Origin: Bacteroidetes/Chlorobi group bacterium MS-B_bin-24 | GTDB lineage: Bacteria > Bacteroidota > Ignavibacteria > Kapaibacteriales > UBA2268 | Length of the DNA stretch: 47,986 bases | Assembly (NCBI GenBank): GCA_003731685.1 | Contig: RCNO01000017.1 | Coordinates: 2,870 to 50,855, forward strand | Direction: 5' to 3' | In this document: piece after piece, positions 1 through 47,955 of the stretch | Numbering within the stretch: the first letter of the stretch is position 1 | Layout: each line of letters opens with the position of its first letter | Made by a program: the position numbers and the translations under genes | Notes under the pieces: model-generated | Database searches by the model: none | What the model saw: only the letters and a program-made list of their open reading frames with translations | Told to the model about the DNA's origin: nothing

Positions 1-779
1 TTAGTCAAAGAATGGTTCGTTTGCAACTTATTTCTTTTAATTATTTTCTATTTGATTGAGCGTCACAATTACAAAAAAGAAGCTAAGGAAGATTTAATCA
101 AAGACCTCGAAGAATACAAGCCCTTACGGTTACGCGGAACGATAAATCTTCTTTTCCTGTTAGGGGTTGTTCTCTCTGTTGCATTCCTCAATCCATTATA
201 TTTGCCTTTTGTAAAGCCACACCACATAGTTCATACATTCGCGAAATTGCGATAATTTTTATGGCTGTGCTTTCTATGATTTTCACCAAAAAAGAAGTCC
301 GCGAGGCGAACAGATTCAATTGGCATCCCATCGAAGAAGTTGCTTATCTTTTCTTTGGAATTTTTATTACAATGACCCCTGCTTTGCTTTACCTCGAAGA
401 ACACGCCCGAGAGTTCGGATTGACGACAATCCACGCGTTCTACTATGCCTCGGGTGCATTGAGTTCGTTCTTGGATAACACACCAACCGCTGTAACTTTA
501 TATTCGCTGGCAAAGGGGCTTATTCATCAACAGCCGCACTTGTTCACCGACCCCGTGATTGTTGGCGGCATCCCTGAACACTTGCTCGAAGGAATTGCAA
601 CGGGGTGCGTCTTTTTTGGTTCGATGACCTACATTGGCAACGGACCGAATTTTATGGTCAAAGCCATTGCGGAGCACGAGAAAGTCCCAATGCCACACTT
701 CTTTGCATATATGTATGGATTTTCGTTGATTATCCTGCTCCCAACTTTTATCATTGTGCAATTGTTGTTTATACATTAA
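1..779 (+). pseudogene. NhaD/citrate-transporter-like Na+/H+ antiporter, C-terminal part, frameshifted (5' end outside window)
   Basis: Frame 1 is open from base 1 (LVKEWFVCNLFLLIIFYLIERHNYKKE...PHHIVHTFAKLR*). Frame 3 continues the protein (IREIAIIFMAVLSMIFTKKEVREANRFNWHPIEEVAYLFFGIFITMTPALLYLEEH...SSFLDNTPTAVTLYSLAKG). Junction is at about 215-240. Confidence 0.7.
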
Positions 780-843
780 CCTTTAAATCAATTTGATTAT
801 TTAAAAATTTAATGATAATTTAGAAAGTTATTATATCTATTTT

Positions 844-1839
844 ATGGGGAAATTTCAAATAAGTTACAAACGAATTAATCCAGTTAAGTCTTTTGGAGAA
901 TTACAGCCATCTCTCTTGGTTGATGTACCAGAATTGACACCTAAACAGAAATTTTTGAATTCACTTGGAGGGGTCGAGAAAAAATATAAAAGATACTTAG
1001 GGTCACCTTTAAGATATGCTGGGGGTAAAAGCTGGGCAGTTGGCTATGTTGTCGAAAAGTTGCCCGAAAATATCCAAAGGCTCGTTTCACCTTTTTTTGG
1101 TGGCGGTTCAATTGAAATAGCGGTAGCAAAAGAATTAGGAATAGATGTAATAGGTTTCGAGATATTCGATATTCTGGTAAATTATTGGAAAATACAAATT
1201 GACAAACCAAATGAATTATATCAAGAGTTAAGTAAATTTAAACCAAATAAGGAAACATATAAGTGGGTAAAAGAAGAACTAAAGAAGCATTGGAAGGGTG
1301 TTATTAATCTTCCACCTTTGATTTTGGCTGCATACTATTATTTTAATCATAATTTATCTTATGGTCCTGGATTTTTAGGCTGGATGTCTAGTGTTTATTC
1401 AAACGAAGAAACATACTCTCGCCTTTTGGAAAGGGTAAAAAACTTCAATGTAAAAAACATTACTATTGAATGTGCTTCTTTTGAAGAGGTTTTACCAAAA
1501 TATAAAACAGATTTCCTTTACTGCGACCCACCATATTATTTAGGGAAAGATAGTACTTTGTTTAGAGGACTATATCCACAGCGTAACTTCCCCATTCATC
1601 ATAACAATTTTGACCACAATTTGCTTAGAGAACTTCTTTTGCAACACCAAGGTGGTTTTATCTTATCTTATAATGATTCACCAACAATCAGGAATTGGTA
1701 TAAAGATTTTGAAATTATTGAATTACCTATACACTACACAATGGGGCAGGGCGAGACCAGAATAGGATTGAACCGAAAGTTGAAAAATTCAAATCATATT
1801 AAAAAGATAAAAGAATTGTTGATAGTCAAGGAACCTTGA
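844..1839 (+). CDS. D12-class (Dam/DpnM-like) N6-adenine DNA methyltransferase
   Basis: 331 aa; SPLRYAGGKSW and FFGGGS (SAM-binding type motifs) and DPPYY catalytic motif. Confidence 0.88.
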   Translation: MGKFQISYKRINPVKSFGELQPSLLVDVPELTPKQKFLNSLGGVEKKYKRYLGSPLRYAGGKSWAVGYVVEKLPENIQRLVSPFFGGGSIEIAVAKELGIDVIGFEIFDILVNYWKIQIDKPNELYQELSKFKPNKETYKWVKEELKKHWKGVINLPPLILAAYYYFNHNLSYGPGFLGWMSSVYSNEETYSRLLERVKNFNVKNITIECASFEEVLPKYKTDFLYCDPPYYLGKDSTLFRGLYPQRNFPIHHNNFDHNLLRELLLQHQGGFILSYNDSPTIRNWYKDFEIIELPIHYTMGQGETRIGLNRKLKNSNHIKKIKELLIVKEP

Positions 1840-6890: not shown

Positions 6891-7263
6891 AATTTCCTCA
6901 TAAAATAATAAAATGCAAAATTAATAATTAATTTCGAAACTATTATGCATGGAGAATTTACGATTTGCCTCCCTCCATTTTAAAATTACGAAGTTTGTGC
7001 ATAGATTTTTTAACAAGAAGGTTTAAAAAATCTTGTTGTTACAAATCTATCTTTATTACCTAAAATTTTGTTTACTTACAAGTATTGTTTCAATTTTATT
7101 ATTATTTCGGGATAATTCAAATAAATTTGTTGGTGATTGCCAGACTCTTTCCACCCAAGCGGGTAAATCATTAAATCAATATCTTCTCGATATCAATGTT
7201 AAATGGCATATCCAACACAAATAACTTGATTGCCAAGATGAACTTCGTAAGCGGAACCTATAG

Positions 7264-7291
7264 GTAGGGGCAACTGGCCGGTCGCCCCTAC
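7264..7291. repeat. Family B palindrome
   Basis: gtaggggcaactggccggtcgcccctac. Confidence 0.85.
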
Positions 7292-7302
7292 AAGTATTTT
7301 CA

Positions 7303-7333
7303 GACATCGGATGTTTCAAAAACATCCGATGTC
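7303..7333. repeat. Family A palindrome, copy A2
   Basis: gacatcggatgtttcaaaaacatccgatgtc; 14-bp arms, CAA loop. Confidence 0.92.
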
Positions 7334-7403
7334 TTTCGGGATGATTCCAATTAGGGTCACGAACGAGGGTTTTCGGTCAAGCCACCAAATAATTTAATAC
7401 CCT

Positions 7404-7431
7404 GTAGGGGCGAATAATTATTCGCCCCTAC
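7404..7431. repeat. Family B perfect palindrome (28 nt)
   Basis: GTAGGGGCGAATAATTATTCGCCCCTAC. Confidence 0.9.
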
Positions 7432-7597
7432 AACAAAACATATTTTACAAACATTCCATCATCATCACCATCGTAGGGGCAGACCTATGAGCCTTCCCCG
7501 ATAAAATGTTATCGATGTAGACCACAGCGTTCGGGCTACCGGCCGGTGGCCTCTACAATGTTGGCAACATCGGCAACATTATATCTGGAAAGTTTTT

Positions 7598-7623
7598 TAG
7601 GGGCGATTTGTGAATTGCCCCTA
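7598..7623. repeat. Family B palindrome
   Basis: taggggcgatttgtgaattgccccta. Confidence 0.8.
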
Positions 7624-7767
7624 CAATTATTTTTTGCTTTTTCGCAAAAACTTATGATGAAAAAGGTGGGGGCAGTTTGTTTTTTCAATAATTCATTCCT
7701 TAAAATTTCTGGGGTAAAGTTGCTCGATTTTAAGTAATTTTGAAGTTTTGTATTTAGGCATATACCA

Positions 7768-19389: not shown

Positions 19390-19456
19390 ACTTAGTTCTT
19401 TTGAAGTCTTATAGGGACGAGCGGCTTACCGCTTCAATAAGATTTGGTAAATTTCA

Positions 19457-19487
19457 GACATCGGATGTTTGCGAAACATCCGATGTC
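19457..19487. repeat. Family A palindrome, copy A3, followed by T5 (possible + strand terminator)
   Basis: gacatcggatgtttgcgaaacatccgatgtc-ttttt. Confidence 0.92.
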
Positions 19488-19565
19488 TTTTTGTAATGAA
19501 CCCCGTTAGGGTTTAGGGTCACGAACGAGTGTTTTCGGTGAAGCCACCAAATAATTTAAAATCTT

Positions 19566-19593
19566 GTAGGGGTGAATAATTATTTGCCCCTAC
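19566..19593. repeat. Family B palindrome
   Basis: gtaggggtgaataattatttgcccctac. Confidence 0.88.
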
Positions 19594-24511: not shown

Positions 24512-24539
24512 GTAGGGGGCAAATAATTATTTGCCCACA
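24512..24539. repeat. Family B palindrome (slightly degenerate)
   Basis: gtagggggcaaataattatttgcccaca. Confidence 0.8.
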
Positions 24540-24596
24540 CAAGATTTTATAATCACAAACCATCGTTCGTGACCCAAACGGTATTTGTTGCAAAAA

Positions 24597-24627
24597 GACA
24601 TAGGATGTTTGCGAAACATCCGATGTC
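24597..24627. repeat. Family A palindrome, copy A6
   Basis: gacataggatgtttgcgaaacatccgatgtc. Confidence 0.9.
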
Positions 24628-24639
24628 TGAAATATACTT

Positions 24640-24667
24640 GTAGGGGCGAACCTCCGTATTCGCCCTT
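24640..24667. repeat. Family B palindrome
   Basis: gtaggggcgaacctccgtattcgccctt. Confidence 0.8.
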
Positions 24668-24853
24668 TGTTCCTATGTGTTTGTCCCTGATGCTACATTC
24701 TATGAGGATTTGTTTTGTAGGGTATGATGATATGTTTTTTATGGGGAATTCATAAATTGACCCCGCAATAGAGCAAATTATGGTGGTTCAAATATAGGGT
24801 GAATTGTATCGAGTAATTACCAATGATAATTCTATTGTACAGCATTGTTGCTG

Positions 24854-47585: not shown

Positions 47586-47627
47586 TTTGCTGTGCAAAAC
47601 CTAAAAGAGAGGAACATAAACAAAAAA

Positions 47628-47658
47628 GACATCGGATGTTTTTGAAACATCCGATTTC
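47628..47658. repeat. Family A palindrome, copy A10
   Basis: gacatcggatgtttttgaaacatccgatttc. Confidence 0.85.
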
Positions 47659-47701
47659 CGGAAATCTGCAAAGAGTTACAAACCTGTGTTCAATCTGGAA
47701 A

Positions 47702-47733
47702 GACATTGGATGTGTTTTAAAACATCCAATGTC
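47702..47733. repeat. Family A palindrome, copy A11 (compensated variant)
   Basis: gacattggatgtgttttaaaacatccaatgtc. Confidence 0.85.
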
Positions 47734-47823
47734 TGACGCCCACTAATTTGATGGAACTCTATTTTAACAATGGATGACTGAATATTCCAGCAAGCAATTA
47801 GGTTGAAGCCCCTGACCAAAAAA

Positions 47824-47854
47824 GACATCGGATGTTTTCGAAACATCCGATATC
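47824..47854. repeat. Family A palindrome, copy A12
   Basis: gacatcggatgttttcgaaacatccgatatc. Confidence 0.85.
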
Positions 47855-47955
47855 TGGAAATCATCAAAGGGCTGTAACCCATATACTTAAACCCGAAATA
47901 TGCAATTAAAAGATTTAATTTTTTGTAATTTTAACAAAAATAATAGGTTGCAGGG

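What the first reader, a model, noticed from the sequence alone, without database searches (positions are those of the whole stretch)
7264..7431. Composite B-A-core-B repeat element present three times in the window, once inverted
At 7264-7431 the order is hairpin B, ~11 nt (aagtattttca), hairpin A, ~70 nt containing GGGTCACGAACGAGGGTTTTCGGTCAAGCCACCAAATAATTTAATACCCT, then hairpin B with an AATAATTATT centre. The same A-core-B order recurs at 19457-19593 (gggtcacgaacgagtgttttcggtgaagccaccaaataatttaaaatcttgtagggg...). It recurs on the opposite strand at 24512-24667: reverse complement reads ...tctttttg...gtttgggtcacgaacgatgg...aaaatcttgt..., with the outer B hairpin joined by tgaaatatactt, matching the 7292-7302 linker. 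The unit is about 130-170 bp, intergenic, in both orientations, with no ORF. It looks like a non-autonomous (MITE-like) or regulatory mosaic element, and I do not recognise the composite as a named family.
Basis: partly seen in the sequence, partly recalled or inferred. Interest (0 to 1): 0.75.

Follow-up and report, generated by a model that had tools for sequence, protein, structure and literature searches.

The report
Miniature transposon studded with DNA hairpins
The repeat is the right-hand part of a previously unlisted miniature transposon, about 310-460 bases long with inverted-repeat ends and no gene of its own, present in about 47 copies in this one bacterial genome; inside it sits a short hairpin that stayed almost unchanged while the rest of the element decayed, which suggests the hairpin does something.

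Summary
The A-core-B block recurs about 47 times in the host genome, in both orientations and nearly always between genes; it is absent from 60 related genomes. At the main locus, three congeners keep the same two genes with only about 140-190 bp between them, against 877 bp here (an empty site). The composite is not the unit, however. Pairwise comparison shows homology running about 205 bp further left to a sharp end, GGTAATTACTCAAT, and stopping on the right at its inverted complement. The best pair of copies (91% identical, unrelated loci) diverges exactly at both ends. Target-site duplication is unresolved and no parent transposase was found. The 'B' hairpins are 'double-foot' REP palindromes of the kind tied to RAYT subclass 2.4; two such RAYT genes are in the genome, one beside a copy. 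Hairpin A is the puzzle: its arms are 96% identical between copies whose core is 69% and whose own loop is 46% identical, about 200 copies exist genome-wide, mostly outside the MITE, with none in relatives. Its function is unknown.

The parts
7264..7291 (.). left palindrome of copy 1, double-foot REP type B2: GTAGGGGCAACTGGCCGGTCGCCCCTAC
   Evidence: definition of double-foot REP in PMC6006769
7302..7334 (+). hairpin A (15-bp perfect arms, 3-nt loop)
7335..7403 (+). core of copy 1
7404..7431 (.). hairpin B, double-foot REP with AATAATTATT centre
7432..7499 (+). right-hand linker plus decayed module C palindrome (GTAGGGGCAGACC...); the linker is shared with 17 copies
6891..7767 (.). expanded intergenic region that is about 140-190 bp in three congeners (empty site)
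19456..19488 (+). copy 2, hairpin A
19489..19565 (+). copy 2, core
19566..19593 (.). copy 2, hairpin B
24512..24821 (-). copy 3, whole recognisable element from its left terminal repeat to B; right terminal repeat not recognisable
24808..24821 (-). copy 3, left terminal inverted repeat GGTAATTACTCGAT
   Evidence: 13 of 14; 29 of 31 over the longer repeat
24640..24665 (-). copy 3, palindrome M1 (RAYT-type REP)
24596..24628 (-). copy 3, hairpin A with one arm mismatch
24541..24595 (-). copy 3, shortened core
24512..24540 (.). copy 3, degenerate hairpin B

Best explanation
[quoted passage not shown] The transposase was not found. Inside, in order: a GGGGCAATTTATGAATTGC palindrome, REP palindrome M1, hairpin A, core, REP palindrome B, and in some copies a linker plus REP palindrome C. 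Shown: copy number, order, ends, lack of ORF, absence from relatives, one empty site. Inferred: transposition by a DDE-type transposase, and that the REP palindromes inside came from the genome's RAYT/REP system. Hairpin A is inferred to carry a sequence-specific function, most simply as a protein-binding dyad or as a structure needed for propagation.
For: About 44 near-full copies in the genome, 47 aligned. Pairwise homology stops about 200-213 bp left of A and, in many pairs, 0-9 nt right of B. Mean identity between copies jumps from 0.24-0.33 outside to 0.65 at the left end. The right flank of several copies is the reverse complement of that left end; 14 copies have both ends recognisable, 318-457 bp apart. 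L033 and L038, 91% identical over 393 nt at unrelated loci, part at GGTAATTACTC... and ...GAGTAATTACC. 45 of 47 copies intergenic, in all gene orientations. Intergenic space of 877 bp here versus about 140-190 bp in three congeners. No copy of the composite in 60 relatives; hairpin A absent from all 60.
Against: No target-site duplication could be shown: 8 bp gives p=0.03 and 2 bp p=0.05, uncorrected over nine lengths tested. Only 14 of 47 copies show both ends, and the terminal repeats beyond about 14 bp are imperfect (14-25 of 32 identical). The motif was chosen after looking at the alignment; 11 or more of 14 also occurs in 13% of random 450-nt stretches (the background stretch itself holds real copies).
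Confidence: 0.75

Rival explanations
1. A BIME/REPIN-like mosaic moved by the RAYT (REP-associated tyrosine transposase) present in the genome: REP palindromes M1, B and C are recognised as single-stranded hairpins and carry A and the core along.
For: Two RAYT genes in the genome with the signature of subclass 2.4; RAYT2 has REP palindromes on both sides and a diverged A-core-B copy next to it, and REPs of types C and M1 in frame inside its coding sequence. Across 61 genomes, RAYT presence goes with >=2 REP B palindromes (15 of 29 versus 2 of 32, p=7.6e-5). The right-hand linker plus C resembles the RAYT gene segment next to its internal REP (anchored score 18, 99% of shuffles <=9).
Against: The unit ends at terminal inverted repeats far outside the REPs, not at REPs. 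B is less conserved than A (77% versus 96%). REP-rich relatives with RAYTs lack the composite.
Confidence: 0.15
2. A functional repeat kept by the host: A is a transcription terminator, 3'-end stabiliser or binding site, and the composites are regulatory cassettes spread by selection.
For: A arms are 96% identical between copies, loop 46%, core 69%; T-run after A; hairpin fold z = -8.9. A-like hairpins in three distant genomes often lie just after a stop codon, once with a run of seven T.
Against: No clear orientation bias against genes: 23 versus 12 in composites, 11 versus 11 for A alone, and most copies sit more than 100 nt from the gene end; about 12 copies lie between diverging genes. Does not explain the terminal repeats.
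Confidence: 0.07
3. Independent accumulation: hairpins A and B are separate mobile palindromes that happen to pile up in the same intergenic regions.
For: A occurs about 150 times without this core, and B types occur alone.
Against: Fixed order and spacing in about 47 copies with a shared unique core.
Confidence: 0.03

Closest known systems
Bacterial MITEs such as BrickBuilt of Porphyromonas gingivalis, QMITE of Coxiella, Correia elements (reviewed in PMC10969869; PMC4596501)
   Same: Short, non-coding, intergenic, multicopy, inverted terminal repeats, variable truncated copies; some carry cargo such as protein-binding sites; truncated QMITE2 copies come to resemble REPs
   Different: No parent insertion sequence or target duplication identified here; contains several REP palindromes and one hairpin far more conserved than the ends
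GTAG/double-foot REP sequences with RAYT subclass 2.4 (PMC6006769); REPs and BIMEs (PMC2817692, PMC3733652)
   Same: Palindromes B, M1 and C fit the double-foot or GTAG-foot REP form; RAYTs of this subclass, with REPs inserted in frame in the gene as reported there, are in the genome and in relatives
   Different: The element is not bounded by REPs, and hairpin A has no GTAG foot
CGTC-tagged palindromes (PMC3733652)
   Same: Short palindromes without a known dedicated transposase
   Different: Hairpin A has no CGTC foot

Membership tests
MITE | Short (<about 600 bp), no transposase gene | tested here: met
   318-457 bp between ends, longest stop-free stretch 100 codons
MITE | Terminal inverted repeats | tested here: met
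   GGTAATTACTCAAT-like at both ends in 14 copies, imperfect inward
MITE | Copies at unrelated loci whose homology stops at the ends | tested here: met
   L033 versus L038; identity step at the left end
MITE | Target-site duplication | tested here: inconclusive
MITE | Shares ends with an autonomous insertion sequence | tested here: inconclusive
   not found in 20 small contigs or in the loci held; the rest of the genome could not be searched for it
MITE | Unoccupied site in relatives | tested here: met
   one locus, three congeners; exact junction not resolvable at about 75% identity
REP of RAYT subclass 2.4 (hairpins B, M1, C only) | 5' GT[AG]G foot, and for double-foot also C[TC]AC 3', G-C rich lower stem | tested here: met
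   GTAGGGGC...GCCCCTAC
REP of RAYT subclass 2.4 (hairpins B, M1, C only) | Cognate RAYT in the genome, flanked by or containing the palindrome | tested here: met
   NCBIfam REP_Tyr_transpos for RAYT1 82 bits (cut-off 80), RAYT2 60.8 (below it)
BIME / REPIN (whole composite) | Unit bounded by two inverted REPs | tested here: not met
   unit continues about 205 bp beyond A to terminal inverted repeats
GTAG REP (hairpin A) | GTAG or GTGG foot | tested here: not met
   A is flanked by TTTTTC and TTTTT
Intrinsic terminator (hairpin A) | Lies just downstream of genes, T-run on the gene's strand | tested here: not met
   23 versus 12 and 11 versus 11, mostly over 100 nt away

The most novel reading that the evidence does not exclude
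Hairpin A is a species-specific, sequence-specific site with a real cellular or mobile-element function (for example a 33-bp dyad for an unknown chromosome-organising protein, or the recognition structure of an unknown mobilising enzyme), spread about 200-fold by hitch-hiking in MITEs and by its own movement, and then held constant while its carriers decayed.
Probability: 0.3. Interest if true: 0.7.

Novelty: new variant of a known kind. Interest (0 to 1): 0.42.

Why it matters
It adds a MITE family in which RAYT-type REP palindromes and a separate hairpin travel inside one transposable unit, a possible route by which palindromic repeats spread. It also offers a natural test of function: one 15-bp arm sequence unchanged across about 200 sites whose surroundings have diverged.

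Tried and rejected
Rfam: nothing at gathering threshold. GTDB pattern scan for A joined to the core: none; A alone exact in three unrelated assemblies. Conserved RNA structure in the core: none; the consensus fold contains hairpin A only. tRNA origin of the core: GAATTCCGTTAGGGTCAC matches the 3' end of tRNA-Glu(ttc) at 17 of 18 (score 31, 200 shuffles reach at most 25), but a related core subfamily reads GAATTCCGTTTGGGGAAAC there, so chance is likely; kept as a lead only. DNA-uptake-like half-sites: not supported, only one unpaired half-site in the window. A as terminator: orientation test not met. A as a class 3 TnpA hairpin with CnGA foot (the foot CAGA fits): no such gene among the two Y1_Tnp hits, so a weak lead only. 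Plasmid and phage collections and viral contigs: no match. Solved structures for RAYT2: no meaningful hit. More empty sites in a 19-kb stretch with several copies: synteny with congeners is broken there, so not usable.

Full report
Observation. Hairpin A, AGACATCGGATGTTT-NNN-AAACATCCGATGTCT, has nine matches in the window with at most three mismatches and none in 100 shuffles. In the whole genome (2.6 Mb, 109 contigs, unnamed) the 133-nt A-core-B block of copy 1 finds about 44 near-full copies; I aligned 47. A occurs 194 times with <=3 mismatches in 30 arm positions and 202 times with <=3 in 22 positions, the reversed-pattern control being zero. Perfect B-type palindromes occur 41 times, with three main centres. 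So the modules co-occur far beyond chance, and the loci are not one duplication.

Where the unit ends. Comparing the copies pairwise with 900 bp of flank showed homology stopping at nearly the same point, 200-213 bp left of A, and in many pairs 0-9 nt right of B. Aligning the left sides gives an end GGTAATTACTCAATACAATCCACCCTATATTTGAAC; mean identity rises from 0.24-0.33 outside to 0.65 at that point. The right flank of several copies is the reverse complement of the same sequence. Fourteen copies have both ends recognisable, 318-457 bp apart. The closest pair, L033 (378 bp between ends) and L038 (369 bp), lie on different contigs, are 91% identical, and diverge at both ends. Shorter forms lack part of the left interior; longer forms carry an extra linker and a further palindrome C on the right.

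Insertion. 45 of 47 copies lie between predicted genes, in convergent, divergent and tandem settings (genes predicted by a simple longest-ORF rule). The exact junction cannot be read at about 75% identity. The composite is absent from 60 relatives.

What the B hairpins are. GTAGGGGC...GCCCCTAC fits the double-foot REP described for RAYT subclass 2.4 (PMC6006769). The genome has two RAYT genes, one above the NCBIfam REP-associated tyrosine transposase cut-off and one below it. Both carry REPs in frame between the HUH and tyrosine motifs, a feature already reported for this subclass. RAYT2 has REPs on both sides and a diverged A-core-B copy next to it. Over 61 genomes RAYT presence and multiple B palindromes go together (15 of 29 versus 2 of 32, p=7.6e-5); relatedness of the genomes was not corrected for. 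The same palindrome centre as B is found beside and inside a RAYT gene of another family of the order (L151). I therefore read B, M1 and C as REP sequences captured inside, or inserted into, the transposable element (inference).

Hairpin A. In 45 aligned composites the A arms are 96% identical, the A loop 46%, the core 69% and B 77%; in the left half the other 15-nt windows range from 0.49 to 0.73 while those over A reach 0.83-0.94. Gene conversion would be expected to carry the loop along, so the simplest reading is selection on the arm sequence, either in the host or as a requirement for propagation (inference). No relative has A. Three unrelated assemblies carry A-like hairpins in which both arms changed together (GACATAGGATG/CATCCTATGTC, GACATCCGATG/CATCGGATGTC, GACTTCGGATG/CATCCGAAGTC), often just after stop codons. 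In this genome I found no clear terminator-like placement. Its function stays open.

Mechanism and its limits. I commit to transposition in trans through the terminal inverted repeats (0.75). Not shown: the enzyme, the target duplication, and recent activity. The most similar rival is mobilisation by the RAYT; the ends argue against it as the mover of the unit.

Status. Absent from Rfam, plasmid and phage records, and not found by text searches for the sequences, which are a weak test. It is a new family of a known kind with an unusual interior.

Noticed in passing
L031 1083-1676 (-), L032 1453-2184 (-), and L139-L144, L148, L149, L151: RAYT genes across the order carry REP palindromes in frame between the HUH and tyrosine motifs, often the type dispersed in the same genome; this is reported for subclass 2.4 in PMC6006769.
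   Followed up: yes
L119, L124, L131, L132, L134, L138: A second composite: A, about 53 nt, an A variant with TCTGGCAGA centre, a related core (CCGTTTGGGGAAACGAAATCGG...), then B; in tandem in L132.
   Followed up: partly
L143 (G038) 580-2300: About 1.7 kb array of some 25 alternating REP palindromes next to a RAYT gene, read through as a long, probably spurious ORF.
   Followed up: no
L145 (G021) 334-1539 (-): RAYT with a long internal NANANVQL-type peptide repeat at the place where others carry REPs.
   Followed up: no
window 47627-47659, 47702-47733, 47823-47855: Three A-type hairpins in 230 bp; the middle one has a compensatory arm change (GACATTGGATG/CATCCAATGTC).
   Followed up: no
core, consensus GAATTCCGTTAGGGTCAC; tRNA-Glu(ttc) at L023 1398-1470: 17 of 18 match between the core and the 3' end of tRNA-Glu, above 200 shuffles; possibly chance.
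   Followed up: partly
L103 around 12957 and 18027: Gene order shared with congeners breaks at MITE copies; the repeats may be rearrangement points.
   Followed up: no
L157-L168: A-like hairpins with both arms changed together in a Sphingobacteriales, a Chloroflexi and a Bacteroidetes assembly, often shortly after a stop codon.
   Followed up: partly
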